A DNA stretch of 42,182 nt from Fragilaria crotonensis. Its lineage: Eukaryota > Bacillariophyta > Fragilariophyceae > Fragilariales > Fragilariaceae. The DNA is taken from positions 1-42,182 of the forward strand of contig JAKSYS010000556.1 in NCBI GenBank assembly GCA_022925895.1. Reading direction: 5' to 3'. A program made the translations under genes and the position numbers. The notes below the pieces were generated by a model. It was given only the letters and a program-made list of their open reading frames with translations, ran no database searches and was not told the DNA's origin. How positions within the stretch are numbered: the stretch's first letter is position 1; each line of letters starts with the position of its first letter. Below are positions 11,218 to 41,573 of the stretch, piece by piece.

Positions 11218-12353
11218 CAAATCCTGTCGCAAAATTGGGACCTGCAGCGACCGCAAAAAGAATAATACTCATCATCTTTACCATCATTACAATACAATTC
11301 TTTATCTTTCAGCAATATTTGCAAACCACCCTTTGCTTCCTAAGCCAACTTATCAAAAGAAGTGTGATCAACAATTTGCCAGCAGTGCCAGCATAAGGAT
11401 GCATTCTATCTCTTGCATACTTAAAGAAAATCCCAGTTGGGATCTATTGATGCAAGCAAGGCAAGCCTGAACTGGTGATCGAGGGAGTTTTGCACTCGCC
11501 GAGTAATACGATTTCATCGGTTATCATCGTCGTGATCAACAGCACTATTGCTTTGCAACATTGCTGACCAGAGTTGCAATGGTGCGGAGTGGTCCAGGAG
11601 CACATCCATAGGAAAGACTCAATGCTGGGTAATCCTTTGATGTTCCCAATTTGACACCATTCTCCCAAACATTTGGGACAGCATTAATCAGTTGGCCAAG
11701 CTGATGATGCAGATAGCCAACAATTCAGTGAACTCAGGATACTCTTGTTGGAAACTGTATTGCTACACAGCTTGACTTTTTGGGGACAACAGCAATGAGT
11801 GACGGCATCGTCACAAAATGGCCTCTTGAAATTTTCTGTTCTGGAGTATTGCGACTTCAAATGGAGGAGCCTTCACGAGCAAGGACAGTGATGCAAGCAA
11901 TGTCATTACTCAGGTTTGGGAACATGATGATGGCCGGGGACAGAAAATTATTGCAACACATCCCAATTGGTCTCAATTCAGAACCAATTTCACAAGCGAA
12001 AACCAGCCACTTCCTGACGTACGATGACAGGAAAATGGGTGAAGTGAATACCTTTCTGATTTGGATTCCCTGACGTAACGATTACGAGATAGTGCCATTT
12101 AGTCGGATCTGTTCAAAGTTTTATGCGAGACATTACACAAGAAGTAGTACGAGTACCTCATGATATGGAAGTAGGAGTGCGGATACATACAGCGTATGCT
12201 GATAGGCAACGGAAGATGAGAACTTCAGTATATTCAGATCTGTATACTGTATTAACGGCATTTCTTATCATCGAGGACAAGCACTGGCACAAGGCACTTC
12301 TTCGCACTTAGCACAGATGATGTTTCGCCTCCATAATCTCGAAATTGACGGAA
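11218..12353. other. No gene recognised
   Basis: Small open frames occur on both strands (for example 11780-12073, +). None gives a family signature. The last 40 bases or so match the 5' flank of the oxygenase fragment at 265 kb-scale position 270-310, so the oxygenase duplication begins slightly upstream of the coding start. Confidence 0.35.
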
Positions 12354-13466
12354 ATGATGCCATCGCTGCACCAGGTAATCATAATATGCTTTACAGTTGC
12401 AGCTTCCCTTGTTCAGGGACACGCATTGGTTGGATCACACCATGTTGACATTATTGCACATGGAGGTGTCGCAATCTTGCCGAATTGGATTCCAGAGACG
12501 TTGACGAACGATATGAGACGCGATGCCCGAGTCCTCTTTGATGCTGGATACTTTACTCCCGATGGACTAACCAACACAGCCCTCACCAAAGATCAGCAGG
12601 GATTCTCTCCTCGTGCCGATCGTCAAACATTCCGCGGAGGTGATGGTTGGGATGACGTGTCTGCTGGTGACCATGGGACGCGGACCGAGTTTGCCAATCG
12701 CATGACCGCCCTGCGACTCGAACTGGCGCAAGGATTGAATCGACCGACAATGGGACTTGAAGGACAACGAGGAAGCGATCGAAATCACGAAATGACGTAC
12801 AACTGGTACGAGCCTGGAGCGAAATTGGGACGACATCTTGATGAACATCACGAAGAAACCAAGGGACCAAAAGGTTGGCAAATGCCGACACGCCGATCAG
12901 TCACGTGGTTGGTTTATCTAAATGATGGGTGGACTAAAGAGGATGGTGGAATATTACACTGCTTTTCCCGTCAAAGTCGATCGAGCGCGCCTGTCGGAGC
13001 TCACGAAGGAAATTTACAAGTGGGTTGGATGGATCATGCATCCGGTGTTTCTAGAATCGTGGCGAGAAGAGAGCGCCTATCGGCTCTACAGGTTGACATC
13101 CGATAAGCGTCCTCGGTGGAGCGAAAATACGTCAGTGCTGGTGATTTTGACATGCCACACCAGCCCATCAAGTTCCAAACATTTTTGCGTCAGGAGTATC
13201 GACAAGGCAGTCGATTTGAACAAATATCAACTGCTCGTCGGGATCCTCGTTTTTTCGACAGTACACAACCGCTGGTGTCGTCGTCAGCGTCCACTGAGAA
13301 TGAATCATATCCTGTGCATATTGTAAATGTCGTTCCAGCAGCTGGGACCTTGGTTTTGTTTGATTCAGTAACGCTTCCTCACCTGGTAGGAGAAGTGACA
13401 GGACCGAGGCAACGAATCGCGGCGACAGGGTGGTTTCATGAAGATAACCAGGCGCTGCCTTTTTAA
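12354..13466 (+). pseudogene. 2-oxoglutarate/Fe(II)-dependent oxygenase (prolyl 4-hydroxylase-like), frameshifted
   Basis: It starts at ATG 12354 with a hydrophobic leader (HQVIIICFTVAASLVQG), suggesting secretion or ER entry. The iron-binding HxD motif is in GRHLDEHHEE, the DSBH strand SVTWLVYLND follows, and the distal His and 2OG-binding Arg are in LVLFDSVTLPHLVGEV and RQRIAATGWFHE near the end. This order fits the P4Hc/2OG-FeII_Oxy superfamily, which hydroxylates protein or small-molecule substrates. The open frame ends at 13106. Continuity needs a shift to frame +1 near 13040 (PVFLESWREESAYRLYRLTS) and back near 13120 (YVSAGDFDMPHQPIKFQTF). No GT-AG intron gives the right phase. It is either a recent pseudogene or carries two sequence errors. 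Confidence 0.75.
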
Positions 13467-13609
13467 TTCCGTTTGTTCGGAGCTACAAGTAAATCCCTGG
13501 ATTGCGCGAGCATTGTGAGCGTAGTGAAGGTCGCATGAATCAAGATAACAATCAACGGCTTCATGGGTGTCTGTTAATCAGGCATAGTATTGTACACTGT
13601 TGTTTACAC

Positions 13610-13899
13610 CGAAATAAATTCGAGTCTTGTCCAAATTTCTCTAAGTCCGTTTAGTCGGATGAGTCGTCTGCTTCGTGGTTTCGTCGTACCGTTGTCTCGC
13701 GCACTGTCGCGTCGATTCGTGTGTTGTCTGTGGTCATTCTCTCTCTTTGTGCTCGTGAGACTAGTAGAAATAAATAGATGGCATCGGAATCTGGTCCTAA
13801 TAGTTTTGTCTCTCTCTCTGGTTCGTCTCGCGGTGTCGGTCCCGTGATAGTTATCTAGCGGGGTCCGTCGCGCGATTGTGAGTCGACCTGGTTTCCGCC
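13610..13899 (-). repeat. Split direct repeat B, distal copy
   Basis: It begins CGAAATAAATTCGAGTC on the plus strand and ends GGTTTCCGCC. It matches 14144-14440 apart from a few small indels (for example in the CTCTCTCTTTGTG tract). It forms the outer 3' end of the element. Confidence 0.9.
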
Positions 13900-13986
13900 C
13901 CATGCAGAGCATGGCCAGGAGGTAACCGGCGCCAGGGCGCCGATGAACCTAGGCATCGGGCCAGGAGAGGAGGTGTGGGTGGGTGG
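13900..13986. other. 87-bp segment with three consecutive hairpins
   Basis: This is the only part of the 3' end not present twice. It has three perfect stems in a row: CCATGC/GCATGG (13900-13905 with 13909-13914, 3-nt loop), CGGCGCC/GGCGCCG (13927-13933 with 13936-13942, 2-nt loop) and CCGATG/CATCGG (13940-13945 with 13954-13959). Adjacent hairpins two and three share bases, so they are alternatives. Confidence 0.8.
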
Positions 13987-14143
13987 GATTAACTAGAGTA
14001 GTGTCTTTGTCGATTCGAGTTCGTTCGGATTGTGAGCAATTCGTATCTTGTGTTGTGTTGTGTCGTGGTGTTCGTCTGTCTGTGTCTCGTGTTCGTCTGT
14101 CTGATGGCGACTGCCCGTCCTTTCCCGATCTTCGGACATGCCA
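13987..14143 (-). repeat. Split direct repeat A, internal copy
   Basis: 157 bp from GATTAACTAGAG to GGACATGCCA, almost identical to 20269-20425 (single substitutions such as GTTCG/GTTCA and GTTCG/GTTTG). It abuts the internal copy of repeat B without a gap. Confidence 0.92.
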
Positions 14144-14440
14144 CGAAATAAATTCCGAGTCTTGTCCAAATTTCTCTAAGTCCGTTTAGTCGGATGAGTC
14201 GTCTGCTTCGTGGTTTCGTCGTACCGTTGTCTCGCGCACTGTCGCGTCGATTCGTGTGTTGTCTGTGGTCATTCTCGTTTCTCTTTTGTGCTCGTGAGAC
14301 TAGTAGAAATAAATAGATGGCATCGGAATCTGGTCCTAATAGTTTTGTCTCTCTCTCCTGGTTCGTCTCGCGGTGTCGGTCCCGTGATAGTTATCTAGCG
14401 GGGGTCCGTCGCGCGATTGTGAGTCGACCTGGTTTCCGCC
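14144..14440 (-). repeat. Split direct repeat B, internal copy
   Basis: This is the inner copy of the repeat at 13610-13899. Its direct junction with repeat A at 14143/14144 is the arrangement expected after recombination of the two ends in a circular intermediate. Confidence 0.9.
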
Positions 14441-14514
14441 ATTTTCCGGTTGTCGTTCGTCCGCAGAATCTGGGGCGATCGTGTAGAAAGATTGTCGACT
14501 CGTCATGCGTGCGG

Positions 14515-17100
14515 CTACCCGAGTGTCGAGTCCGGCACTTGAATTCGGAGGTATCTCATGAACGTCTGGCTTCGCCACCTCCCCACCATCTGAATCGTCT
14601 CACTTGGAACTCCGGCGAGGTGCATGGCCATCGCGGCGCCTGATCTGATCGAGTGAGTGCCGATGCCACTCGCCTGGAGGCCAAGCCTCTCTCCCCTGCG
14701 AGTCGTCGCCATCCTGAGCTGCCTCAGTATGGACTTGGAAGAGATGTGTTGGGGTTCGTCTGAGTCCTGCGTCCTGACGGCGTTAATCTTCGGGTTCGTC
14801 CGTGAATGGCAATCGTAACCCGTACCCTCGTCGTCAGGTCCGCTAGCACGCGGACGGGGCAGATGTCCGTTTGTCCCTGCCTGTCGTTTCGATGCTGAGT
14901 CACTGTCGCGCCTTTGTCCCCGTTCTTTTGTCGCCGGAAGGTGATCGACACGGTGTCGGCATTCTCCAGTTGTCCTCGGTCGGTTGTCTGCAGGTCCTGT
15001 CCCTTCTGTCGGAAACGAACGTCGTCCACTCTGATCACTGATGTCGTCCGTCGGCTTCCGACATCGGAATATTCGCACGACCTCATGGCGAAAAAGAACG
15101 CGACCACCACAAGTTGTCCAATAGCGATGTCCGTCTCGTTTCTTGCCCAGGATCGAACCTTTGAATCACCTCTAACGGCAGCGCCTGCTGTGGGTAGGTC
15201 CTGGGTCCTCGTCGGCGTAACGTTTCAGTTGTAAAGCCAGAAGGGGGTCGAGTCGTCCGGCGGCGTCGTGGATTGGGCTCTCAAATTTGTTAAGCCTGAA
15301 GGCCTGAGCCACACCGTCGAGGGTGGCACGAATGGAACCGGACAAGGGTCCATTGCCAGCTTCCTGAGGTTGTCGGGAGCGAAGCCGTCCGTCCCGAAGG
15401 GCGGCGGCGAAGCAGGCGAACGTTTCTGCTTTCGCTTCTCGTCCGAGTCCTTGGAGAAAAGGCTCCCTCCCGACTCCGTCGATTCGTCCGAGGAATCTTT
15501 CGTAACAGCGCCAGCTGCTATCGCGCTTGGCACGGGTTGAGTCGGCAAGAGCTGCGTTTTGGGCAGCAGCTGCAGCCAGCCTCCAATCTGCGAAATAAGG
15601 GCTGGCCGCAAAGGGATGATCCTGAAGTTCTGTGGAACAAACGGTGAGCAGTTTTTCGTGATCAAGTCTGTCAGTGCCGCGTCGTCTAGAGCGAAATCTC
15701 GGGAGAGCATGTCCGCCACCTTGTTCTCTTTCCCTGGGAACGTTGAAGTTCGACTTAGCAAGCCATCCCGCTGCTGAGGTGCTGTCTCCCTGACTGAGCA
15801 GAACGTCTTCGTCCGTCCACGCGGCCCCTTCGCGGAATTCCACGATCATCCCCACAAAGGCAGCGAGGAACTCGAGAGTGTTTAGTGTCGCTCGCCCCAG
15901 CAGGTGCTCTGGTAGCTGATATCGCCACGCCAGGCCGCTCTTGAGGCAGTAGCCTCCGATGCCTTGCGGGCATGCGTCCACCCTCACTATGCGCGTCGGC
16001 CACCGGCAAACCAGCCTGTTGATCGAGATACCTCGCGACGCCTTCTGAAGGAAAGCCTTCCACAGAATCAGGTCGTCCAGTTGGGGTTTGGTCAGTCTCG
16101 CCTTCCCGGCCTGCTTCGAACGCTCGCAGGCCTTGTATAGCCTTCCCATAAAGTGTCTTGCGTAAGGGATGACGTAGGCGGCGTGGCTAAAACGTCCGAG
16201 TGTCGTCTCCAGGTCTCTCGTCGTCACGAAGGCATGTCTGTGCGTCAGCATCCTGTCAACGGCTTGCGTCCAGCTCATGTGCTTATCGTGAGGCAGTGCG
16301 ACGATGAAGCGGCGTGTGTCCACGATCCATCCGAGGATCATCTTCCTCTCGGATGGTTTGGCCTCGGCCAGGAACTTTGGGATCGCAAGGATATCGTCTC
16401 TGGGGAAAGTCTCCTCGACCTCGGGGTCGCAAGGCCTCCCGACCAGGTGAAGCGCCAGCGGGATCGCGGCAGCGCTCTTTTCTGCGTCGCGGGGATTGAA
16501 GGCCCCAAAAATGTCGTCCAGGTAGCAGTCGAAGCGAGGGAGGTCGTCGTAGGGTGGATAGTTCACTGCGAAGTAGTCCGCCTTGCCGAAAACACTCATT
16601 TTGTCGACCGACCCTTTGTCATTGTCCACTGCCCCCTCGGTGTCCAGGAGGTGCTGGTGCGGCGAGTGGTAGACGCTCGGATCCCAGTCGTCCCTGCGGA
16701 CAAGGTCGTTTGCCAAGTCCGTGATCATCTCCGACACGTCGCTCCATTGCGATGGGTTTGGCGCTCCACCGAACGTCATCCTCAGCGCCACTAACAGCAG
16801 GTCGTCGATACTCGTGCAGGACTTCATGGCTGTGGCTGCTTTGAGATGGATTCGTCTGTAGGCGGATTTGCAGTCGACCTTCGTCATCCAGATAGGCTCG
16901 TCTGGCCATAGTTGGCGCAGGAACGAGATGTGGTACATGAGTCTGCTGAATGCTTTTCCGAAACGTGCTTCTGTCAGTTGGGATGTGTCCACGCGTTCAT
17001 TTACGCCGTCCTGCCACTCCGCTCGGGCTGAATGACTGGTCGTGTCAGTCGGAGTTTCTCTAATTGAATTTCTTTCGTCGATCGACGTCTGCGCGACCAT
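14515..17100 (-). pseudogene. pol: Pol: reverse transcriptase - RNase H - tyrosine recombinase (frameshifted)
   Basis: It starts at ATG 17100, 41 nt inside the end of gag. RT motif A is KVDCKSAYRRIHLK (Asp about residue 76), followed by RMTFGGAPNPSQWSDVSE and the catalytic CYLDDIFGAF (about 192-201). RNase H follows with VDACPQGIGGY, NTLEFLAAF and QGDSTSAAGWL, then GKENKVADMLSRDFALDD. The tyrosine recombinase has an SAM-like N-terminal domain (DSTRAKRDSSWRCYERFL) and catalytic FFFAMRSCEY (Arg), GTHSIRSG (HxxR), GRW and FMRYLR (Tyr). The frame must shift near 15735, 15560, 15190, 15140 and 14820; the longest single frame ends at 15172. All visible catalytic residues survive, so decay looks recent. 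Confidence 0.88.
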
Positions 17101-19285
17101 CCCCAGGCGCGACCTCGCATCCCTTGATCTCTAAGGCGGCTTCTCGCGGCAGTGGTAGCTGCCAACCCCTTGAGGCTTCGTCCTTCAGCATGGATATCAA
17201 CTTTGCCTCGTGGCCTCGGGCCGATTTGTGATTGCCGCGAGCTAAGTTGGCGCGCACGTCCGCGAGGCGGTCAGAATCCGAGATCTCGCGAAGCGGGAAC
17301 TCGGCCCCTTCGGAGATGCGCTCCTGAAAACGCGGCCAGAGAGGGTGGGCGGACAGGAGCGGGGCGAGAAGTTCGGTGGGGCGAAACTCGGATCCCGGCG
17401 TCAGGGCGCTGAACGGCTGGGCCCGAAGGGCGGCGTCGAGGTCGAGGGCGTACCGTTTGAGCACCGCGAGGTTGTGGCGGGCGGCGTCGTGCGTCCAGTC
17501 GAAGCGAAACTCCGTCGCGTGGGTGCGCGGCTGGCCGGAGTGCAAAATGGTGGCAAGGGCATCGGCCAGGCGTGGTTCGGGAAGTCGTGGGAACGGCGAG
17601 TCGACGTTCGGGAGCGGGATCGTCGGCAATGGCACCAACGATGGGAACTTACCGGGAAGCGGGCGTGGCGTGTCTGCGAGGGCCGATGTCGGCGCGTCGT
17701 GGGCGTCTCCGGGCGACAATGCACGCGCCACGGAGTGGTCGGTCGGTGGCGAGTCGAGGGCGGGAGCGTAGCGCTCCAGGCCCGACTTCGTTTCGTGACG
17801 GGTCGTCGCAGGCTGGCGAGAGATGCGGGGCGTCGGCGACGTGGCGGGGGCGAGAAGGTTCGTGCGCGTGGGTTCCCGCGGGACTGTCTCGGGCGGCACA
17901 TTCCGATAAGGTCCGAGGCGTCCTACGTGGCGTCTGTTGTGGAACTCGGCCGTCGACCGTTCCTGGTCGAACGCCCATTGCGACGGCTGTGCGACGAAGG
18001 CGGGTTGGAAGTAAGCAGATGCAGAGGGTCCTAATTTTGTTTTCTTGCTGGGCGGCGTCGCGTCGGACGAGGGGCGGCGCATGCGCGCCCGGCACTGCTC
18101 TATCCACGCTCGTACGGCGGTCGTCTGTTCGGTCGTGAGGGCGACGTGCGAGGCGCTCAAGAAGCAGCTCTTGACGCACTTCCCGTTTAGGTGCCATCTG
18201 CAGCACATGTTCGGGATCGGTCCACTTCGGACGTGATCGAGGAACACCTGCCAGGTGTCGTTCGCGTCTCGCGGAAAAAGGTCCTGCTGAGGGTTTGTGA
18301 CTGCGTCCGCGGGTTGCCCGCGACGTCCGGCTCGAGCGCTCCCGGCGGCGGCTACAGGCTGCGAGTCGCCCTTTTGGTCGACTCCACGTCCCAGCCGCTC
18401 CTTGAGGAAGTCGCAGGCCGGGAAGACAAAGGCGCCGTCCTCCAACTGCTGCCGGGTTGACCTGAATTCCAGGAGTGCTGGGTTGATCTCGTCCTCGTGT
18501 TCGACTCCGGCGCAGAGAACCAGGTATTGCTGCATGCGTTTTTCGATGAACCAACCTAACCTGCACGCGGCTGAGGGGTCGGCGTGCGCTAGCTGGCGAA
18601 GCGTCGCCAGTGTGGATCCGACCGCCCTGGTCAGGAAACGGCTCCACTCGTCCAACATGTGTGTGAGCGGGGAATTGGCTCCGAAAAGGAGCTCCAGCAC
18701 TCCGCTCATGTTCTCGATAAGCCGCGCGAGTTCGTGAAAATCTTTCGGCACCGTGAAGTTGAGTTTCGTCATGCTCTTGATGTCCTTCTCTGAGAAACCC
18801 GTGGTCGTGTCGGTCGTCTTAAGTTGCATTTGCACAAGGGTGCTGGCGTGTTCAGAGGCTTCTCGCCCGATCGCTGCTGCTCGGGCGAACGTCTGGGGAC
18901 CGCAACAGAAGAGGCTGAAGGCCCCTGGCCGGTCAGGTGTGTCGGCCGTGAAAGACGCGGTGCGGATTGCGGCGCAGAAGCCCATGGGAATGAACGCGTC
19001 TCGACCTTTGGTGTTCCTCAAGAAATGGTGTATGTGGTTTTGTACGTAGGCCACGTTACTGAGCGTCAGGATGTCCGAGAAGGACTGGACCGGGCGGCTG
19101 CGAATCATCCCGTCGGCGTCCCTTTCGGACACGAAGAGGACCATTCGTTTCGTCGACGGCGGGAAAGAGTCAAAGCCCGTCTTCGACGTTTGGGGGGGTC
19201 GAGGTCGCTGCGTTGGCTGCCTGTCGCTCCAGTAACGTTGACAGGTTTCGAATGGCGTCCTCCGTGCGTCCTGGTGTGCTGGCAT
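17060..19285 (-). CDS. gag: Gag-like protein with Cys/His zinc finger
   Basis: A 741-residue frame from ATG 19285. A helical N-terminal half has no named motif. A Cys/His finger at about residues 357-378 (MCCRWHLNGKC, VKSCFLSASH) resembles the single finger found before RT in many such elements. The rest is Pro/Arg-rich and presumably binds nucleic acid. It ends with EIKGCEVAPGDG and stops, while the next frame resumes as the start of pol at the same place. This suggests that gag and pol were one reading frame in a parent element and were split by a single-base loss in CCTGGGGATGG (about 17101), or that a +1 ribosomal frameshift joins them. The frame itself is intact. Long frames on the opposite strand here are GC-rich shadows. 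Confidence 0.75.
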   Translation of the reverse strand: MPAHQDARRTPFETCQRYWSDRQPTQRPRPPQTSKTGFDSFPPSTKRMVLFVSERDADGMIRSRPVQSFSDILTLSNVAYVQNHIHHFLRNTKGRDAFIPMGFCAAIRTASFTADTPDRPGAFSLFCCGPQTFARAAAIGREASEHASTLVQMQLKTTDTTTGFSEKDIKSMTKLNFTVPKDFHELARLIENMSGVLELLFGANSPLTHMLDEWSRFLTRAVGSTLATLRQLAHADPSAACRLGWFIEKRMQQYLVLCAGVEHEDEINPALLEFRSTRQQLEDGAFVFPACDFLKERLGRGVDQKGDSQPVAAAGSARAGRRGQPADAVTNPQQDLFPRDANDTWQVFLDHVRSGPIPNMCCRWHLNGKCVKSCFLSASHVALTTEQTTAVRAWIEQCRARMRRPSSDATPPSKKTKLGPSASAYFQPAFVAQPSQWAFDQERSTAEFHNRRHVGRLGPYRNVPPETVPREPTRTNLLAPATSPTPRISRQPATTRHETKSGLERYAPALDSPPTDHSVARALSPGDAHDAPTSALADTPRPLPGKFPSLVPLPTIPLPNVDSPFPRLPEPRLADALATILHSGQPRTHATEFRFDWTHDAARHNLAVLKRYALDLDAALRAQPFSALTPGSEFRPTELLAPLLSAHPLWPRFQERISEGAEFPLREISDSDRLADVRANLARGNHKSARGHEAKLISMLKDEASRGWQLPLPREAALEIKGCEVAPGDGRADVDRRKKFN

Positions 19286-20231
19286 GGTCGTCCGTCCGGA
19301 TGAGGCTCCTAGCTCTGACCGCCAGATACTTGAGGTGTAGCGATTTCGCCCATTCGTCCGATCGTTTGGAGTATGCGTTTGATGCCGCCCCTCGCTTCGT
19401 CCGGGTCCTCCTCGAGTTTACCGCTACGCTGAGGACCCACCGCGGGATGTAAGAGGCTGCCTCCGCGCGGATGGTTGCTCTGGACGGGTCTGGGTCCTCG
19501 CTCGCTCTCTGTTTAATGGCGTTGACGATCAGTAGGGCGAGCTCCTCTGGAGCGGTGACGTAAGTGTCCATGATGGCGGCTGCAATGAAGGCCGGCACCG
19601 GGACGGTGGGCTTCATCGTGAACCCGACGACCGTGACGTCGTCTGTGTCGTCCTCGCTTGCTTCGACTGGCTTGCTTGGCTTCGCCCGGTGCTTCGTTCC
19701 GCTTCCTTTCTTCGGTCGTCCTCTGGTTGCAGTCGGCAGGGTGCTGGCTGGCTCGGCGTCGCGCGTGGCTCCGGTGCTGACGCCTGACACCTGCTGGGCA
19801 CGTGTCGTCAGAGATTCATTGATCGCCGCCAGTACGTCCGACGTAGAATTCCACGAGAGCATCCTCGACCAATCAAAAGGCGTTCCGATGTGTCGCTCTA
19901 CGACCTGTTTCGTGTCGACCGCCATGGCGGCGGCGAAGCCGCCAGCCCCCATCAGTGCCCAAAGGGCGTTCGTCCCGTCGTTGAGTCCATCGTCAGCGTC
20001 GTGGTGGAAGTGATGAAAGAGTCGGATCACTCCGTGCGTGTTTACCATAAGGTGGGCGACTTCCGGAGAGCACAAGTGTACGAATCCTGTAGAATTAGTA
20101 CTGACCGAGTTCGTCTTCGAATTCAAGGCGCTGAGCTTTTCGACGACCTCCCACTGGTCGAGTTTCCTGAAAACGTCCAGCCACGTCAAGGTCATCGTCA
20201 TCGGGGAGCGAGCGTCGTCTGACCTCTCCAT
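19170..20231 (-). CDS. Leading ORF of the YR retrotransposon, unknown function
   Basis: A 353-residue frame from ATG 20231, starting 37 bp inside the 5' terminal repeat boundary and overlapping gag by 116 nt in another frame. An AT-hook-like core RGRPKKGSG (about residue 170) sits in a basic, Ser/Thr/Pro-rich linker. The flanking halves look folded and end in a basic helical segment (NSRRTRTKRGAASNAYSKRS). I recognise no family. Position and charge fit a nucleic-acid-binding structural protein, or the N-terminal half of Gag split off by frameshift. Confidence 0.6.
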   Translation of the reverse strand: MERSDDARSPMTMTLTWLDVFRKLDQWEVVEKLSALNSKTNSVSTNSTGFVHLCSPEVAHLMVNTHGVIRLFHHFHHDADDGLNDGTNALWALMGAGGFAAAMAVDTKQVVERHIGTPFDWSRMLSWNSTSDVLAAINESLTTRAQQVSGVSTGATRDAEPASTLPTATRGRPKKGSGTKHRAKPSKPVEASEDDTDDVTVVGFTMKPTVPVPAFIAAAIMDTYVTAPEELALLIVNAIKQRASEDPDPSRATIRAEAASYIPRWVLSVAVNSRRTRTKRGAASNAYSKRSDEWAKSLHLKYLAVRARSLIRTDDHASTPGRTEDAIRNLSTLLERQAANAATSTPPNVEDGL

Positions 20232-20268
20232 TGCGTCGGTGGTTCAAGTCGGGTCGGGAGAGAGGCCA

Positions 20269-20425
20269 GATTAACTAGAGTAGTGTCTTTGTCGATTCGA
20301 GTTCATTCGGATTGTGAGCAATTCGTATCTTGTGTTGTGTTGTGTCGTGGTGTTTGTCTGTCTGTGTCTCGTGTTCGTCTGTCTGATGGCGACTGCCCGT
20401 CCTTTCCCGATCTTCGGACATGCCA
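20269..20425 (-). repeat. Split direct repeat A, 5' terminal copy
   Basis: This is the 5' end of the element on the minus strand, nearly identical to 13987-14143. The match stops exactly at CATGCCA (20425), which sets the outer boundary. Confidence 0.92.
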
Positions 20426-20486
20426 TGCCGGTACCGAACAATAAAAATGAACACAAGCGTCATCCTATGGTACTGGTACTTGTACA

Positions 20487-20491
20487 ATATA
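20487..20491. repeat. Target site duplication, left (ATATA)
   Basis: ATATA immediately before LTR1 matches ATATA at 26464-26468 immediately after LTR2. A 5-bp duplication is typical of LTR-retrotransposon integrases. Confidence 0.85.
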
Positions 20492-21391
20492 TGACAGACT
20501 TCCAGTATCGCCCTACATATTTTTACATCTATCCCGATCCCTAACTGTCGCCCGTGTGCACAGTAAAACGTTACATCCGTGCTCCAGTAACCAGTGCGAC
20601 ACTGCACGACTGGAATCAAAACTCTCGTCGATTTGAATTTCATGTTCATCTCATCCCATGAGATTGAACACTCATTTTCAAACGAGACTCAACGCCTCGT
20701 GTACCGACGACCACACCGCGGCACGAAACGACGTCTCCGAGAAACGAGGAGTGTTCCTCATTGTTCCAAAGGAACACTCCCCATCTATCAGACCTCTCAT
20801 CCCTTGGTGCACCTCTCCTTCTTCTCACAATTGTCGAAATTACTCATTTTAGTGCCACTTACCTTTTTTCTGCACATACTGTGAATATTGCACATCATGA
20901 ATGAAATTGACCATGACGAATTTTACCGCCGGTCGTCAAATTGTCAACCTCACCATACTGTACATATATCAGTAGTCAGTACGACGGTACTCACTATTAC
21001 GACAGCACACAACACAGCAATCAGTACAGCAGTACTTTTTGCACATCACTTCCTCTGCCCGGCCATAGTCCGTGCACGTCTGAGTCTATCGTTACCGTAC
21101 ATAACGATAAACTATTAGACAGTGCCCACTATGACCAAAGCAATATTCTTACTAGTCAGTCCTTCGCACATTTATGTAGCGATAGACAGACAGATAGTAT
21201 ACGTATCGTTATCTGTAGCAGTAGACAGCATTGTATTGCTGTACCGTACACAGATACACTAAGCAGTAGTCAGTGTCGTACTAGACACTTACCTACTGGG
21301 GGCGTACCCCGTAACGGTTACGTCCTGGTTCTTAACCCGAACCCTATGCCGACCTGCGCGTCGCTAGGTTCCGTTAACCCGAACCATATCA
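20492..21391 (+). repeat. 5' LTR
   Basis: It begins TGACAGACTTCCAG and ends CGAACCATATCA. It differs from the 3' LTR by small indels (for example CTCGTGTACCG against CTCGTACCG) and a few substitutions. It contains the inverted motif AGTGTTCCT...AGGAACACT near 20750-20778, a short hairpin conserved in both LTRs. Confidence 0.95.
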
Positions 21392-21409
21392 TGGTTGCTC
21401 GCCAGGTTG
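21392..21409 (+). promoter_or_regulatory. Candidate primer-binding site
   Basis: TGGTTGCTCGCCAGGTTG directly follows the LTR; TGG at this place fits pairing to a tRNA CCA end. The motif is partly repeated downstream (CTGGTAGCTC, CTGGTTGCTC). I cannot name the tRNA. Confidence 0.4.
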
Positions 21410-21653
21410 CTATCCTGGTAGCTCACCTGGTTGCTCGCGACGAAACTCCGAGCCTATTCAATTTATATTTGGTGCCTAGCACCAATTTAAATTGTTCTAA
21501 CCTTTGTTCTTTCCCCTTCCAGCTCAACTTTTATACCAGCAGTACATGTTCCTACTGCCAGAGAATTGAAATTCTCATTCCTTGTGCTCACTTTTTTTTG
21601 CAAAACTTGTCTAACCCAACTCACCCTTCATCCTCAACTTTGCAACTCTCACC

Positions 21654-22622
21654 ATGGTCAACCCAGCACTAACCCATTTGCCTCCAACTGAGGCCAACTG
21701 CCCACCCACCCATTGTGTCAAACCAACAAAGCACATGGCGAACTATGTTGCCGCCGACGGCGACATTACAGCTCCTTTTGATGCACTCAAAAATGCTGTC
21801 CTACCTTTCAAGAAGCATTCCTTTTCCTATGTTGCAACTTCTAACACTTCTTCCATTGCTGAATCTAACACCTACAGGCCCAAGAAGAGCCCCAAGCAAG
21901 CTCCAGGCCATTTTCAGCACACCGCAACGGCCCTGACTCCTGAGCAAGAGTCCGCCGTCATCTCGCGTTTTCTTGAAACCATCGATCAAGAACGCCTCCA
22001 AGACACCAACACCAACAACAGAGTTAACTACGCCTGCGAACTCTCCTACGAAGCAGGATCTACCGATATGGGTCGCTCCCATTCTCTATCCATCGAACCA
22101 GGCGCCATCTACGACAACGCAGCCGCCAAATTCCAAGACAATCAAGACAACAACGCGCGCAATACCTTCGCTTCCACCATCATCCCGCGCCAAGAAGACC
22201 TCCAACTCGCCTCCTACGAAAGGCCTATCAAGAACCAACGTGTCAGATTCAATTTTAACGTCGAAACCATCAAGATCAAGAACAACAATGAAGTCGCGAA
22301 ATGCGACTCTTTCAAGATTCCGGCGACGAACGCCGAAGACCTCCACTGCGACAAGAGGGGTATCATCCAAACCGCCTTCAAAAAGGCTCTCCAATGCATG
22401 TCCACAATCAAAATTCCGACGAATACTCGAGGAGAAATAGTCCGAACAGTGGACTGCATCAAAGAATTAGCGCAGAACGTACGTTTTAATACGCCGTGCA
22501 AGCGCGAAGCTCGCAAGAGCGATTCTGACGACGACATCAATCAAGCGAAGCCAGAGCTTCCCACAACATGTCTTCTTTTCTTCAGGCGCCAAGAATTGGC
22601 AGAGAACAAGCAAAAACAATAA
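21654..22622 (+). CDS. LTR element ORF, N-terminal Gag-region protein
   Basis: A 322-residue frame from ATG 21654 (MVNPALTHLPPTEANC), 262 nt downstream of the LTR. It is polar and rich in Asn, Thr, Pro and Lys, without a named domain. A middle block reads as a possible helical region (ALTPEQESAVISRFLETIDQ). It ends in a basic Gln/Lys tail and overlaps the next frame by 55 nt. The DNA between about 21960 and 22560 is noticeably richer in GC than its surroundings. I infer that it is the first part of a polyprotein or a separate accessory protein. Confidence 0.55.
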   Translation: MVNPALTHLPPTEANCPPTHCVKPTKHMANYVAADGDITAPFDALKNAVLPFKKHSFSYVATSNTSSIAESNTYRPKKSPKQAPGHFQHTATALTPEQESAVISRFLETIDQERLQDTNTNNRVNYACELSYEAGSTDMGRSHSLSIEPGAIYDNAAAKFQDNQDNNARNTFASTIIPRQEDLQLASYERPIKNQRVRFNFNVETIKIKNNNEVAKCDSFKIPATNAEDLHCDKRGIIQTAFKKALQCMSTIKIPTNTRGEIVRTVDCIKELAQNVRFNTPCKREARKSDSDDDINQAKPELPTTCLLFFRRQELAENKQKQ

Positions 22623-33757: not shown

Positions 33758-36700
33758 TCATTCATGGTTGATCATTGCACTCCTCAACTCAGAATGCACA
33801 AAGCCATTGTCAAAGTCAAGGACACATCTGTGCCCTTTGAAGGCTTTACTCACCCTCTCAATATCGGAGTATGACAGGAGCTCCTGCTTTATGTGTGAAG
33901 GCATTCTGGCAGCAGGAGATGTTCTGTCGGCGTTGGAAGCTGAATTCGAATCTTCATGTTCTGCTGCTGCTCGCTTCTGCTGCTCCTGATGAAGGTGGTG
34001 GTAAGTACAAATATATGCACGTGCACGCGAAGCAAACTTCTGAATCCTTTGCTTTGTCAGCACATTCAAAGGGCAGGTGCAGTCTTTACCAGTTGTTTAA
34101 AATTGTCGCGTCCTCGCTTCCGAGACAGCGGCATGCGTCGATAATATGCTTTCGAATGTGCCCAGCTGTATTCGATACCTTCGCCGGCAAGCTCAGCGTG
34201 AAACTTGGGTGTCAGAAGTACCGTTACTCCAAGCTGTGTTCCGATACTGCAGCGCCGTTTCCTCTTCTTTGAAATCTCTGCAGTTGCCAAGTAGGCTGCG
34301 AAGTGAGTAATGTAAGTCAACTTCGCCCGTGATTGAATCCTTTCGCCCTTCCAAAGTGTATTTTTCTAACGATGCTCGTTCTATTAGCCCTCGCTCTCCG
34401 AGGACTTGCAAAAGACCTTTGGGTTTCTCCCATCCAGGTGTGACTTGTTCCTTGCGATCATGTAACTCAATTTGGTTGTTGCGAGCAAAATCTTGAAGTT
34501 CTTTTTGGAATAGCCTCGTTGCTGCTGAAGAGTAACACCTTTAGCATGCAATGCTTCAAGCAGCTTTTTGGATCTCTCGACAAGTCTGATCTTGCCTGTT
34601 GGTCGGTCATGTCGTTGCATGGCTTGTTGCTCTGGAGACAGGTACCATGGCCCTTTATCTTTGGCTGCGAACGTCATTGATTGAATGTCCGCAACACGCA
34701 GCTCAGGTAAGTGTGGACCAAGATATCCTTCTTCTGCCATAATTGTCGTGTCTCTCATCAATGGCTGTGCTCCTCCGTAGGATTTTGACATATGCTGCGC
34801 GCTGAGGGCTTGATCGCGTTTGCGAGCATGACCTTGACTGTGATCGAAGAGGAAGACCAGATCAAATTCGGGATAGAGGACTTGTAAACAATCCACGACA
34901 TCTTCCAGTTGGAGACTCATGTAGAAAGAATTCCAGTATCCTTCATTGTTGGCCCCGATGAAAAGGTATTTAACAAACGGTGATTCTGTCAATGCCACTT
35001 TGTTGATTGTGCCTATTATTTCCATGGCTGCGTGCGTATCAGTGTAAGTAGCTCTGCTTTGTTGTCGATGTAAGTTAATCCTCGCTAACTCATCCTCCGT
35101 TAAAGGTCTTCCAAACCCAAACTCTCGCGAGACGAACGCAGATAACATATATCCATCGCCTTCCGACTTCGGAAGAAGGGGACGCTGTCCCTTTGGTCCT
35201 ATCCAAGTCTTTGCTCCTAGGAGATATTGGGCGAATACACTTTCATCCTGGCCAACGATCATTATCGGCCTCGCAATTGACGACACCCGAATGCTGGTTG
35301 TTGGATTGATGCTTTCCTGCTGAGTGCTACTATTCATGCTGGTGGCATCGGCACCACCGCAGTGCTGACTCCAGTAGTCAATATGGAATTCAACTAGCTC
35401 CTCGTCTCGGATAATGTCAAAATAACGATGTCCAAATCCAATTTCCAACCCTTCTATCATCGTAGCTTTTGCAACAGGCAATTGTATCCATCGATTGCAA
35501 TAGGGCTCCAATTTTGTGAGATACGTCTCGCAGAAGGTTTGTCGATTTGCAACCACATCCTCCCGTTCGTGGCCATCGACATAGAAGCTCTTCCTTCTAA
35601 CATCATATTTGAAGCCTAGTAACCGCATCCAGCGCCATGTAGTTGAAAAGCTCATTGATTGAAGTCTATGAGCTTGAAGAAAGGAATCAGTTACTGCTTT
35701 GTTGCGGTCAGCATTGTCGTCAGCAGTACTTGCAGTGCTTGTTCCCGACGAGTCAACAACAATTTTGTGTTGTTGTTCATGATTGTCATCCTGCCATACT
35801 ACTACCAATCGTGGTATCACCGTAGACACAATGAAGTCATGCACACCTTCTATTGTTAGGGTTGTTAAATTCCTGACACCGAATGCAACAATCTGTTCTT
35901 TTGCATCAGGAAAAGTTTCGAGCAATCGCGGCAGTGGTCGCTTCCCACACTGGACGTAGGCATTCGGGTGGGGAAGCATTCGAGCTTCCTGTAGATTTTA
36001 TTCCACTCTGCAATGGTCCTATAGAAAGTTGCTTGTTGCATTCCAAGATCATTCAAGCGGGAACAGGCTTCCTTACAACAATCCTGCCAAGTCCATTGGT
36101 TCATTTTTTGTAGTGCAAGTTGATATGCCAGACACAAAAATGATGCTCGTTGCCGAATCTCGAAGATTTCAATCTTCGAACAGAAATTATCAGGATCTCC
36201 GCCCTTCACCACACCACGCCAGCTGTCTTTGCTCTCATGAACTGCCTGTAGTGCTGCAATGCGACGTTCAAGCGTCTCCTGATGACTTTCGTCCAACGTC
36301 ATTGTATCAACGAGAGTAGTACTGTTGCTGCCAACGCCGACGCTGCCGATGCCAACGCCTCTACATATTGGTCCTCTGCTGCTGAACAACTGACAAGCCT
36401 CTGGACTTGCAGGCCAATACGAGCATGAACTGCTGGCAACCGCTTCTAATCTTTGACGCTTTTTTTGGGACTCTTCCTCATCTTCATTGGCATCACCATC
36501 AGCCCCGACACTTGTTCCAAACACTGTACTAGAATCGACGGTAGCAGGTCGTCCCCTTGTTGATGGAATTGCAAGAGCATTTGAGGCGATTTCGAGCACC
36601 CTATTCTTCCAAGCTCCATTCAGTGGAGATGGATACATCACCTGCTTCAACTCTTGAGTTAAATAGTAGTAGTGACGGTGCTGGAAGGTGACTCGGAACA

Positions 36701-36947
36701 TGCCAGTAAGGTTTGACCCATCAAACCTCAACATTGCCGATCCGTAACAGCTGGATTTGGCAAACGCTGCATTGAATTGGCGGACACTAAAGATAAGGCC
36801 TTCATCAATGTGTCCAAGCTTCCTCAGTGCTTCCACCCAAGTTTCTGCAGGGAGCCAAGAATTCAACAATCTGGGTCCGTACGTGATGTCAGAACGAATC
36901 AACATGACAGCCCTGATAACAACAGCATAAATTCTCGTGTCAGCCAT
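33758..36947 (-). pseudogene. DDE transposase of the GHEREDVV family, frameshifted
   Basis: It starts at ATG 36947. The N-terminal domain has KIEIFEIRQRASFLCLAYQL and NQWTWQDCCKEA. The frame changes at a CCCC run near 35973 and continues in a 531-residue frame (to 34384) with WRWMRLLGFKYDVRRKSFY, the family hallmark VDGHEREDVVANRQTF, IMIVGQDESVFAQYLLG (first Asp plus Glu) and LVFLFDHSQGHARKRDQALS (second Asp). After 34440 shifts continue through PKGLLQVLGERG, LGVTVLLTPKFHAELAGEG, EYSWAHSKAYYRRMPLSRK and KAFKGHRCVLDFDNGF. This transposase type is widespread in fungi and occurs in stramenopiles. At least three to four frameshifts make the copy inactive. Confidence 0.8.
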
Positions 36948-37178
36948 CGAGATAAACAACCCAGCCAACACAGCTCGTTACTTGGGAGTATTTTGAAGGC
37001 TTCTGTGTGTGCTGGGTAGTTTAAAAAGAGTGCATCTGTTGCAAACAACGGCATGCAATATCATTGTGGAAACCTCGCTTTCAGCACGAGAGTTTTTTCT
37101 AAACGTGACGTCACAGGCGCAATAATTCTTCCATTATGTAGAATCTATACTACGGCCTGCGCTAGGTTTCTCAGTTGC

Positions 37179-38058: not shown

Positions 38059-38988
38059 CTAGTTGTTGGCTTCAACGTCGGGCAGCTGCTGGGTTTGTTT
38101 TTTGCTGTACTGGCAAATCTTGGCATCGACCCATTTCGCAAAGTACGACACCCGGGTGTACACCTGTGGCAAATTGGCTGCCACGCAATTGGTAGCGCGC
38201 CCGGAGCTCCAGGAGGTGATTCCCACTTGTACATTCTTCGATACAGTGGAACTCGGAATCAACAACGGACCACCTGAATCTCCACGGCATGTCCCCCCGA
38301 CTCCTTCTTCGCTAGCACATATGGCCGATTGCCTGATCGCTGCACGGCCGTATGCTTTCCAGCATGCGAGCATGGGCGTTGAATTAACTGACACCTGCAT
38401 AAGATAATCCGGAAAGTTATACTCTTGATTGTTTCCAAAAGGTGACTCGGTCGTGTTTATTCCAGTGGCGCCGAGACCGATGGCAGTCAGGCGATTGCGA
38501 CTGGTGTCACTTGGGAAGGAAGCATTCCTGTTGATTAGCACCAGTGGCACGCCCACCACAGGTACGTCAAGAAAGATTAACGCAATGTCATTAAAATACT
38601 CGACAGCATCGTAGTCGGGATGAGCCACCCAACGAAGAGCCTTGCGGAAATACTCGTACTCAGAATACTTCACGGAAGATGAGTTCACCCACAACTCTAC
38701 GCTGCTGAGGGAATCAAAGGAATCGAAGCTTACACAATGTGCAGCGGTCAACACCACATCGGGTGCGATCAGAGTTCCTCCACAGAACCCACTATTTCCG
38801 CTAGAAAGGTACAGTTTGACCAATGTGTAAAAAGGATACCTCCTGGGATTTGCGATCGTGCCTCCAATGATTCGAGAGGTCAGGTCCCTGTTATGCCCCT
38901 GCAATGCATTAGATTCAATAGAACCCGAACTGCTATGAAGCACTATGAAGAGAAAAGAAAGAAAAGCTATGAAACTGCTGCTCATCAT
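38059..38988 (-). CDS. Secreted S1-family serine protease
   Basis: A 309-residue protein from ATG 38988 with a clear signal peptide (MMSSSFIAFLSFLFIVLHSS), activation site RIIGG at about residue 39, and the complete chymotrypsin-fold triad: His84 in LTAAHC, Asp134 in FNDIALIF and Ser238 in CRGDSGGP. The residue at the S1-pocket base (six before Ser) is Gly, not Asp, so trypsin-like Arg/Lys specificity is not expected. The frame ends DAKICQYSKKQTQQLPDVEANN. One A fewer in the A6 run at about 38094-38099 would instead give a tail of KPTTRKPSPKPTRRPTRKPS, as found on many diatom proteases, so the C-terminus may be a frameshift. The neighbouring gene at 40.7 kb is a divergent relative. Confidence 0.88.
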   Translation of the reverse strand: MMSSSFIAFLSFLFIVLHSSSGSIESNALQGHNRDLTSRIIGGTIANPRRYPFYTLVKLYLSSGNSGFCGGTLIAPDVVLTAAHCVSFDSFDSLSSVELWVNSSSVKYSEYEYFRKALRWVAHPDYDAVEYFNDIALIFLDVPVVGVPLVLINRNASFPSDTSRNRLTAIGLGATGINTTESPFGNNQEYNFPDYLMQVSVNSTPMLACWKAYGRAAIRQSAICASEEGVGGTCRGDSGGPLLIPSSTVSKNVQVGITSWSSGRATNCVAANLPQVYTRVSYFAKWVDAKICQYSKKQTQQLPDVEANN

Positions 38989-40646
38989 GGTGTGATGTGG
39001 GATGTGTGTGTTGATTGTTGTGACTGAAGCAAACGCATGCGACACAAAAATGTGTCCAAAAGAAACTCCAAAATTTAGCAGAATGAAAGCGCATCCTCGT
39101 TCGGTTTTGTCCTATGTCCTATGTCATATATCATTCAAGTCTTGGGAGCGCTTTTTTCGCCCAATTCATGGTCGATGTGAAGTTTTCGCGTAAAACGCAA
39201 CACATGAATCCGATTTTTATACCATCATATGACGTCATCAGCACCTTCGTATTGCTGAGAGGTCTATGCATAATGCGTATGTATGGGATGCTACTGTACC
39301 AGGTACATGCATATGACATATCATACAGTGCATACAGTATGGTTCAGATGCGGTGGTACTACAGTGCACAGCATGCATCACAGGGGTTCCCATGAATAAT
39401 CGAGGCGCATGCCACGTCTAGATATTTCATGCTGACAGCCAAAATTATAACTTACTTTGTTTCATAAACAGGAAACACACATTAGATGCTTAGCCAGTGT
39501 TGTACGACGTAGGTCGCCTAAATCTGCTTTTTCAATCATTTGTGTACAACATTTTTGATACTCCGGGTACTTGATAGACTTCTCCTACTAGAGTAGGGTC
39601 ATTTTTGTCGTCGCTAAGCCCGGCACTGCTGGGTACATCATTCTTCTCCTTCATCGACAAGCCCAGACAAGAGGTCTTGACCAAAACAAACCGAAGTATG
39701 TCACTGGGTTCTACTTTCTGCCAATGCGCGGATTGCAAGCGCTGTTAAACTTCATAGCAGCATATATCTCTGTTTCCATCGCTTCCATTGATGTGCTCCA
39801 TTCAACTCGTTGGTAAGTGCTGTCACCTTGTCTTTCTGCCGTGGCTCTCCATTCATGTTTATGGCAACTCACAAATTGCACCCTCTTCTCACACTCCATG
39901 ATCCTAGTCGTCATTCTCAGGCTGTACATTTCGGTTGATTAAAGATTTGCTATCTCAGCAGATCCGCGTTTCGCACGACTCAATGGATTTCTGCCCGTCC
40001 GTTGTCGACATTCCACATCAGGACGACAGATCTACCGAACATAGAGCATTCAGGGTTGAAACACATGCCGCAATAAGAATCATGTACACTACTCCGTACT
40101 GTACATCGTATAGCCTGCAAGTTGAGTTGGTTCACATACCGAAATCCCAGACAGTGGCAAGAACTCAGCTTCTGATACGACCGGTCTGTGGCGAACGGGA
40201 CAAGTAGCCACAGTGCGGAATGAACTGCTAAATCCTACTTCATCACGTAGATCTAAACTCTGAACTCTGAACTTGCTTCTTGAAATGCAAACGAATGGCA
40301 TTCAAAGGCACCAAGATCCTTGGAGCGTGCACTGTTCAAGCGATGACACTCCGCATGATCATAAAACCGGACATCGTGCCGAACTCTACCGGTAGAAAGA
40401 TCCACCCTGACGAAGAAACATCACGTGGAAACGAACTTTAATCTTGGGCTTCAAAGGAAGGACATTCAATCGCACCAAGCTCCGTTAAGTTTATGGTATG
40501 ATACTCTGACCTCCCAGGGAGCGACAAACCAGTAAGTTGTAAGAAAGGGTAGTTCGGAACAACCCACGACTGGTAAAAATCAAATGATCGCACACACACG
40601 AGTTAACGAGCCGCTAAGGCGAACTGGTATTAGGTGTGAGGTATGA
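38989..40646. other. Spacer between the divergent protease pair
   Basis: No gene is recognised. Frames at 39532-39738 and 39711-39929 (both -) are unassigned. A palindromic TGACGTCA lies at 39230-39237, about 240 bp upstream of the protease start. GTAC motifs are dense at 39290-39370. Confidence 0.4.
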
Positions 40647-41573
40647 GCAACACAAATTCGTTTCCTGCCTCAAAACTTGCTTCACATTACTTCGGGTGCG
40701 ACTGTTCGTAATCGCCTTGACTATGGGGACTATGTGCCGCCTGCGGTCCCGATCACGTATCCTTTCTTCGCGCTGGTCAAGTTCTTTTTTGCTCATGGAC
40801 AGTCTGGGTCTTGTGGTGGGAGTCTGATCGCTCCTGATGTAGTTTTGACGGCAGCGAAGTGCGTAACAGAACGTAGCAGTACAGGCCTAGGCCCTCCCGT
40901 CAGTGTAGAGGTGTGGGTGAATTCTACTTCCTCTGCCTATTCTGAGTACGATTACTTCCGCAAGGCCGTTCGCTGGGTCGTCCATCCTGATTACAACGAG
41001 TTCAGCTTCGCAAACGACATAGCGTTGCTATTTCTTGACACGCCTGTGATGGGTGTGCCTCTAGCGCTGCTGAACAGGGACGATGCCCTCCCTGACAACA
41101 GCTCCTGCATGAAAGTCCTTGCCAATCCTAATTCAAGAACCAATCGTGGTTTTAGTCAATTTTCTCGCGCCATCACTTATGCTCCATCTCTTTCGCAGGT
41201 GCCAGTAAGGACATTACCTGCCCTTGCATGCTGGAAAGCATTCGGCGCCAACAACTTCAAGGAATCACTCCTTTGCGCTGCTGACCACGGACTCCGCGGT
41301 GGCATTTCTGGAGGGCCACTGCTACTTTCATGTTCTTCTGTGCAAGTGGGCATCGCCATCTGTGGTGCGAGTCTGGACAGTCGTTACTCGTCGTACTCAT
41401 TGGACGAATATCAGGGACGCAGGACGGATACGAATTCGAATACACCCAAGGGTTATACAAGGGTGTCGCACTTTGTTGAGTGGATCGATGCTCAGATTTG
41501 CCAGTTCAGTGCAAGCAAACCCAGCAACTGCCAGACGAAGGCCCTGAAAGCCGTCGGTGAAACCGCGGTATAG
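40647..41573 (+). pseudogene. S1-protease homolog lacking catalytic His and a start
   Basis: It is closely related to the protease at 38-39 kb: ALVKFFFAHGQSGSCGGSLI, APDVVLTAAKC, SEYDYFRKAVRWVVHPDYN, NDIALLFLD and WIDAQICQFS match block for block. The catalytic His is Lys (AAKC for AAHC), GDSGGP is GISGGP so the Asp before Ser is lost, and the neighbouring Cys is gone. The activation site RIIGG reads RLDYG. There is no in-frame ATG before the homology begins (the frame opens after a stop at 40644), and no signal peptide. A long intact frame remains, so it could be an inactive protease homolog with an unseen 5' exon, but a 5'-truncated pseudogene is more likely. It has no proline-rich tail. 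Confidence 0.8.

What the first reader, a model, noticed from the sequence alone, without database searches (positions are those of the whole stretch)
13610..20425. Split-direct-repeat tyrosine-recombinase retrotransposon in a diatom-like genome
Two different repeat modules (157 bp and about 293 bp) are each present twice in exactly the A-ORFs-B-A-B order of PAT/Ngaro elements, and pol carries RT, RNase H and a tyrosine recombinase with Arg, HxxR, GRW and Tyr visible. Such elements are known in animals, green algae and fungi; a full-length one with intact end architecture in a diatom-like genome would extend this group and gives clean ends for finding active copies.
Basis: partly seen in the sequence, partly recalled or inferred. 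Interest (0 to 1): 0.75.

Follow-up and report, generated by a model that had tools for sequence, protein, structure and literature searches.

The report
Ngaro-type retrotransposon family in a diatom
The window carries one copy of a multicopy diatom jumping element that is copied through RNA but pasted in by a tyrosine recombinase, a rare but known kind whose diatom members are hardly described.

Summary
Confirmed. On the minus strand, 20425-13610 is a full-length split-direct-repeat element, A1-ORFs-B1|A2-B2, with gag-like, RT, RNase H and tyrosine recombinase (YR) coding parts. Of 16 other family copies read whole, 13 keep the complete A-B-A-B order. B1 abuts A2 with no spare base, and that joint is the exact fusion of the outer ends. 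Empty sites found for four copies match the joined flanks without a gap: no target duplication or loss. Six more loci in two clades (about 38% RT identity) repeat the architecture; the B|A joint is TCG|T in all nine loci read. Plastid PsaA is closest to diatom photosystem I. Part order and lack of a methyltransferase make it Ngaro-type, not PAT or DIRS1.

The novelty premise is weaker than claimed: Ngaro is published from brown alga, Cafeteria and an oomycete, and DIRS is listed for Phaeodactylum. The window copy's coding region lies in several frames, but the assembly is indel-rich (psaB is split too), so decay cannot be told from sequencing error. Unusual: no Pfam RVT_1 match at any of 90 related loci, and recent, diverse expansion. 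A phylogeny with reference elements could not be run.

The parts
20269..20425 (-). A1, 5' terminal split repeat (157 bp; begins TGGCATG)
19161..20231 (-). gag-like coding segment (ORF1, 353 aa), first frame
   Evidence: continuous with the next segment in relatives L018 and L022
17060..19285 (-). gag C-terminal part with a Cys/His finger-like motif (CCRWHLNGKCVKSCFLSASH), running into the start of RT; second frame
15237..17106 (-). reverse transcriptase (VDCKSAY, FGGAPNP, YLDD) and RNase H (VDACPQG, LEFL, QGDSTSA), two frames
14518..15273 (-). tyrosine recombinase (MRSCE, THSIRSG, GRW, YLR), at least two frames
14144..14440 (-). B1, internal copy of the 3' repeat (297 bp)
14143..14144 (-). B1|A2 joint TTTCG|TGGCA, equal to the fused outer ends; inferred site of circle closure and recombination
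13987..14143 (-). A2, internal copy of the 5' repeat (157 bp)
13900..13986 (-). 87-bp spacer between A2 and B2 (83-88 bp in the 12 other ABAB copies)
13610..13899 (-). B2, 3' terminal split repeat (290 bp; ends TTTATTTCG)

Best explanation
It is one copy of a multicopy Ngaro-type YR retrotransposon of a diatom. Shown: A1-(gag, RT, RNase H, YR)-B1|A2-B2 architecture; exact B1|A2 abutment whose sequence equals the fusion of the two outer ends; few or no substitutions between paired repeats; precise insertion without target duplication or loss at the four copies with an empty site; the same layout in six more loci of two deep clades. Inferred from the published Ngaro/PAT model: the element RNA is copied by RT/RNase H; the internal B1|A2 block serves as the template that regenerates and joins the outer ends into a circle with a B|A joint at TTCG|T; the YR recombines that joint with a chromosomal site, with at most about one base (T) of favoured identity. 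The last step rests on the joint and on a flanking-base bias; no circle was observed.
For: ABAB order in the window and in 12 of 14 copies; 0-bp B1|A2 gap in all 14 that keep both repeats, window and L009 included. The C133 allele is also ABAB. Paired repeats: 11 of 14 ABAB copies (window and C133 included) have no substitution between A1 and A2, 10 of 14 none between B1 and B2. Empty sites for 4 of 11 queried flank pairs; the one aligned for each shows no gap across the joint. Six of 12 further loci show ABAB, including three from a clade with about 38% RT identity. B|A joint TCG|T in 9 of 9 loci read. YR model: the 10 Foldseek matches with E up to 0.15 and all 50 rows of the second look are tyrosine recombinases or topoisomerase IB, best Z 12.4. 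RT-RH model: six best Foldseek matches are retroviral RTs; second look Z 10.6 for RT and 9.9 for RNase H. No Dam-family match in the genome, and about 210-230 aa between the RNase H end and the YR Arg motif in 7 of 7 loci measured.
Against: No RT or YR phylogeny with reference Ngaro, PAT, DIRS or VIPER sequences could be made. Pfam RVT_1 does not recognise the RT, and profile comparison with gypsy and intron RTs gave no match, so RT identity rests on motifs and on a low-confidence model (mean pLDDT 56.5) in which only residues 340-584 were well matched. PF00589 is weak (E 0.002 to 1e-4, under the cut-off) and absent in the two clade-2 YR ORFs scanned, L026 and L028. Three of 16 family copies are not ABAB (L009, L013, L018). 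The window copy's coding region is broken across frames. No circle, transcript or transposition was observed.
Confidence: 0.88

Rival explanations
1. A PAT-like element: the same split direct repeats, but in the methyltransferase-bearing DIRS/PAT lineage.
For: Split direct repeats are shared by PAT, Ngaro and VIPER; Ectocarpus has PAT-like as well as Ngaro families; a gag finger motif is reported for Pat1 elements.
Against: No Dam-family match in the genome, while the control rang in E. coli (1 of 14 control genomes); little room for a methyltransferase between RNase H and YR; internal repeats lie downstream of YR, the Ngaro/VIPER layout described in PMC4157794. A methyltransferase too diverged for Pfam is not excluded by the search alone.
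Confidence: 0.07
2. A DIRS1-like element with inverted terminal repeats.
For: RT, RNase H and YR content is shared.
Against: No inverted repeats in the region or inside the element; direct repeats in the copies read.
Confidence: 0.01
3. An LTR retrotransposon plus a tandem or nested insertion, or an assembly artefact, that mimics A-B-A-B.
For: The assembly is indel-rich and holds two versions of this locus.
Against: Same order in 12 of 14 other copies, nearly all at different sites, and in six more loci of other sequence; gap-free empty sites; YR present, and no Pfam match to an rve integrase in the 21 ORFs scanned.
Confidence: 0.02
4. The window copy is a dead, frame-broken copy (real decay) rather than a sound copy read with sequencing errors.
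For: Coding parts lie in several frames.
Against: Indel density against the other version of the locus is alike in flanks and element (8.9-10.1 per kb); the plastid psaB gene is split in two frames in the same assembly; the C133 allele breaks at other places.
Confidence: 0.3

Closest known systems
Ngaro superfamily (order DIRS), e.g. Cafeteria burkhardae Ngaro types 1-4
   Same: A1-[ORFs]-B1A2B2 split direct repeats, gag-like, RT, RNase H and YR order, about 6-7 kb, stramenopile host (PMC8547959, passages).
   Different: Cafeteria RT and RNase H hit Pfam PF00078 and PF17919 as reported there; here no RVT_1 match. The Cafeteria elements often sit in virophages; not tested here.
Ectocarpus DIRS/Ngaro (15 families) and DIRS/PAT-like (5 families)
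   Same: YR retrotransposons, abundant and diverse in a photosynthetic stramenopile (PMC12477816, passages).
   Different: Sequences not available to compare; brown alga, not diatom.
PAT-like elements (Pat1, Toc, Kangaroo)
   Same: Split direct repeats A1-B1-A2-B2 (PMC4157794, passages).
   Different: They encode a putative methyltransferase; none found here.
VIPER/TATE of kinetoplastids
   Same: Split direct repeats in VIPER ordered A1...B1 A2 B2 (PMC6681497, passages).
   Different: Different host group; sequences not compared.
DIRS annotation in Phaeodactylum tricornutum (Phatr3, 14 copies, 18,118 bp)
   Same: Same order of elements listed in a diatom (PMC5859163, table passage).
   Different: Only a count is given in the passage seen; no end architecture or classification below DIRS.

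Membership tests
YR retrotransposon (order DIRS) | RT and RNase H in the element | tested here: met
   Motifs aligned over 12 sequences; retroviral RT and RNase H best structural matches, Z about 10. Pfam RVT_1 negative and model of low confidence, so met on motifs and fold only.
YR retrotransposon (order DIRS) | tyrosine recombinase instead of DDE integrase | tested here: met
   PF00589 E 0.002 in the window, 1.6e-4 in L021 and 1.2e-4 in L022, all under the curated cut-off; none in L026 and L028. Motifs; structure Z 12.4.
YR retrotransposon (order DIRS) | no target site duplication | tested here: met
   Empty sites for four copies equal the joined flanks with no extra or missing base; 7 of 11 queried pairs gave no listed empty site.
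Ngaro | split direct repeats A1-ORFs-B1-A2-B2 | tested here: met
   Window plus 12 of 14 other copies.
Ngaro | no methyltransferase domain | tested here: met
   No Dam-family match in the genome; spacing between RNase H and YR; no methyltransferase match in relatives' ORFs.
Ngaro | internal repeats downstream of a co-oriented YR | tested here: met
Ngaro | RT/RH and YR cluster with reference Ngaro sequences | not testable with these tools
   No eukaryotic reference sequences held; viral and prokaryote scans found no relative.
PAT-like | methyltransferase domain | tested here: not met
DIRS1-like | inverted terminal repeats and internal complementary region | tested here: not met
VIPER-like | RT/YR affinity to kinetoplastid VIPER | not testable with these tools
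   No reference sequences.

The most novel reading that the evidence does not exclude
The two diatom clades form a separate, old group of YR retrotransposons beside Ngaro, PAT, DIRS and VIPER. Its RT has drifted beyond the reach of RVT_1, and its members share a fixed recombination joint TCG|T although much of their A and B repeats has diverged, so the joint would be the true attachment site of the YR. Insertions that end exactly at a single B (L013, L022) would be products of the minimal A-ORFs-B circle rather than later B1 x B2 deletions.
Probability: 0.18. Interest if true: 0.55.

Novelty: new member of a known kind. Interest (0 to 1): 0.4.

Why it matters
YR retrotransposons are rare and their integration chemistry is largely modelled, not measured. 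This diatom genome offers many near-identical copies with clean ends, matching empty sites and a fixed B|A joint across diverged families, which would make circle formation and target choice directly testable if the alga can be cultured. The Pfam RT model (RVT_1), as run here, matched none of 90 loci of this class, so repeat annotations of diatoms that rely on it may under-report them (inference).

Tried and rejected
PAT or DIRS1 identity: rejected on the missing methyltransferase and the repeat orientation. Nested LTR element or artefact: rejected on independent copies and empty sites.

Led nowhere: 18S rRNA search for host identity gave machine errors twice. IMG/VR and GTDB scans with the RT alignment had 21 and 8 pattern matches, none confirmed as a relative. 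PDB sequence searches with the window's 642-aa RT/RH ORF and with the RT alignment found nothing; the YR alignment gave three weak fluorescent-protein matches, taken as chance. Pfam gave three weak matches taken as chance (Xlink 0.2, Dehalogenase 0.055, BCA_ABC_TP_C 0.058). Profile-profile comparison with a gypsy family and two intron RTs of the same genome gave no match; the alignments were shallow, so this is uninformative. The empty-site search scored only 40 of 193 candidates, so the 7 of 11 flank pairs without a listed empty site say nothing. One search failed because of a wrong strand in my coordinates and was repeated correctly within. A repeat scan with a filtering bug that printed no repeats was redone.

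Dropped before counts: from the 22-site flank count, C133 and C641 (same sites as the window and L010), L011 (same site as L010) and L009 (no B2); L013, which ends at B1, was kept. In one search the narrow fetched ends showed the 3' end in 11 of 20, the 5' end in 12 of 20 and both in 7 of 20; misses are not evidence of absence.

Full report
OBSERVATION. The element lies on the minus strand and reads A1 (20425-20269), ORFs, B1 (14440-14144), A2 (14143-13987), 87 bp, B2 (13899-13610). No inverted repeats were found.

HOST. The window is contig C510 of a 62.1-Mb, 881-contig genome. Its plastid contig C881 encodes PsaA. The four best PDB matches (8xls, 6l4u, 8zeh, 6ly5; 1663-1699 bits) stand clear of the next (1547 bits) among the 60 of 171 shown. 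8XLS is Thalassiosira pseudonana and 6LY5 Chaetoceros gracilis (PMC11527431, passages); that 6l4u and 8zeh are also diatom structures is recalled. The host is therefore most likely a diatom; the species was not determined.

COPIES. DNA searches scored 40 of 75 RT candidates (97-100% identical), 40 of 120 A candidates and 40 of 109 B candidates, so counts are lower bounds. Of the 39 other RT matches, 16 were read whole. In the 14, 12 are A-B-A-B; L009 lacks B2, where foreign sequence with an LDTGAS protease-like motif begins within the first bases of B2 (motif read by eye), and L013 ends exactly at B1. The C133 copy is A-B-A-B. L018 (C208) keeps A1 but none of B1-A2-B2. That makes 13 of 16. L016 is about 1.2 kb shorter inside. 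In the 14 copies that keep both, B1 touches A2 with no base between, and the joint TTTCG|TGGCA is exactly the fusion of the two outer ends.

REPEATS. Between A1 and A2, 11 of 14 ABAB copies (window and C133 allele included) have no substitution; between B1 and B2, 10 of 14; short gaps are more common. This is what the published Ngaro/PAT model requires, in which paired repeats should be nearly identical at insertion (PMC6681497, passages).

INSERTION. Joined flanks of 11 copies were searched. Four had empty sites: L015 (C440), L013 (C869), L010 (C135) and L006 (a repeat; 37 of the 41 rows). One empty site for each was aligned over 120 bases, and in all four the alignment runs across the joint with no gap, so there is neither target duplication nor loss. 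The L010 empty site (96% identical) has C where the filled site has T as first 3' base; that may be plain divergence. Over 22 distinct sites the first base of the 3' flank is T 11, A 7, C 3, G 1 (counted by eye; the window itself is the G; binomial p 0.010 for T and 0.002 for A or T against equal base frequencies). The element starts with T, so a one-base T overlap is the most that crossing over appears to favour, and half the sites lack it. Target choice is otherwise loose.

RELATED FAMILIES. A protein search with the window RT scored 116 of 309 candidates and gave 128 matches, which fall into 90 loci when matches under 1,500 bases apart are merged: 39 at 80% identity or more, 24 at 60-79%, 12 at 45-59%, 15 at 30-44%. 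Of 12 further loci fetched, six are A-B-A-B: L019, L021, L023, L024, L026, L028. L029 shows the B pair only; L025 has B and a partial A; L022 has one A and one B with exact ends; L018 and L027 keep A only; L020 none. RT identity between the two clades is about 38%. The joint read in nine loci is TCG|T every time, TTCG|T in eight.

PROTEINS. RT motifs (K-x-D...AYR, FGG[SA]PNP, DD) and RNase H acidic motifs are conserved. The YR has MRSCE, [HR]S[IL]RSG, GRW and Y[IL]R; clade 2 has Arg where HxxR has His. Pfam finds YR weakly in the window, L021 and L022, not in L026 and L028, and RT not at all. A genome-wide RVT_1 search gave 111 matches; comparing its list by eye with the 90 loci, none overlaps. 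AlphaFold models are of modest confidence (pLDDT 56.5 and 63.1), yet the RT-RH model's best matches are foamy and murine RTs (Z to 10.6, 97 residues, rmsd 2.3) and RNases H (Z to 9.9), and the YR model's are Int, Cre and XerH (Z to 12.4, 164 residues, rmsd 3.4). The palm part of RT is poorly modelled and was barely tested. Pfam finds no Dam-type methyltransferase in the genome, and the RNase H to YR interval (632-698 bp in 7 of 7 loci) holds little beyond the YR N-terminal part, a judgement by length.

READING FRAMES. In the window the coding region runs through several frames, while relatives L018 and L022 hold gag-RT in one frame of 1501 and 1586 aa. The same locus is also assembled as C133 with the element in place: 10,106 columns at 97.7%, 78 mismatches and 99 gap openings. 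Gap density is alike in both flanks and element (9.4, 8.9 and 10.1 per kb; mismatches 3.0, 13.0 and 8.2 per kb), and 64 of 99 gaps are single bases. psaB is split into two frames too. The frame breaks may therefore be sequencing errors; I make no claim of decay or of activity for this copy.

MECHANISM. Shown: architecture, exact joint, repeat identity, clean insertion. Inferred: RNA copying, circle closure on the B1|A2 template, and YR integration at TTCG|T. L013 and L022, which end precisely at one B, fit either B1 x B2 recombination or insertion of a minimal circle; I cannot decide.

KNOWN WORK. Ngaro and PAT-like families are published for Ectocarpus (PMC12477816, passages), four Ngaro types for Cafeteria burkhardae (PMC8547959, passages), Ngaro copies for Phytophthora nicotianae (PMC8400872, passages), and 14 DIRS copies for Phaeodactylum tricornutum (PMC5859163, table passage). 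A 2011 review names DIRS/Ngaro-like elements in E. siliculosus (PMC3145265, passage). Searches for 'tyrosine recombinase retrotransposon', 'Ngaro', 'diatom' (20 of 23 listed), 'diatom genome' with 'Ngaro', 'Ngaro' with 'Bacillariophyta', 'DIRS' with 'diatom' (25 of 95 listed) and tyrosine recombinase, retrotransposon, diatoms, DIRS together listed no paper whose title or start of abstract describes a full-length split-repeat element in a diatom. The library is open-access PubMed Central only, and most listed papers were not opened, so this is no proof of absence.

VERDICT. A real, well-formed Ngaro-type family, recently expanded by the identity of its copies, in a diatom. Ordinary in kind, useful in detail.

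Noticed in passing
G000:C881:97856-100013 (loci L002, L003): Plastid psaB is split into two overlapping frames in the assembly, a sign of uncorrected indel errors.
   Followed up: partly
window 11598-21659 and L070 (C133): C510 and C133 are two versions (haplotypes or duplicate contigs) of one locus, both with the element; gap openings outnumber substitutions.
   Followed up: yes
window 12345-13466: 2OG-Fe(II) oxygenase gene beside the element, apparently also broken across frames in the assembly.
   Followed up: partly
G000:C880: A contig with more than ten RVT_1 matches, two of the ORFs with YADD; looks like an intron-rich mitochondrial genome (inferred).
   Followed up: no
L013 and L022: Copies of two families end exactly at a single B repeat, A-ORFs-B only; L013 has a matching empty site.
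   Followed up: partly
window 34384-36971 (-): Two overlapping ORFs (531 and 368 aa) without Pfam match; a transposase-like impression only.
   Followed up: no
window 38059-39045 (-) and 40677-41573 (+): Two trypsin-like serine protease genes facing opposite ways.
   Followed up: no
L019-L029: RNase H is followed by a YR frame that overlaps or shifts differently between families (f1 or f2), so YR expression may use different frameshifts or restarts; assembly errors not excluded.
   Followed up: no
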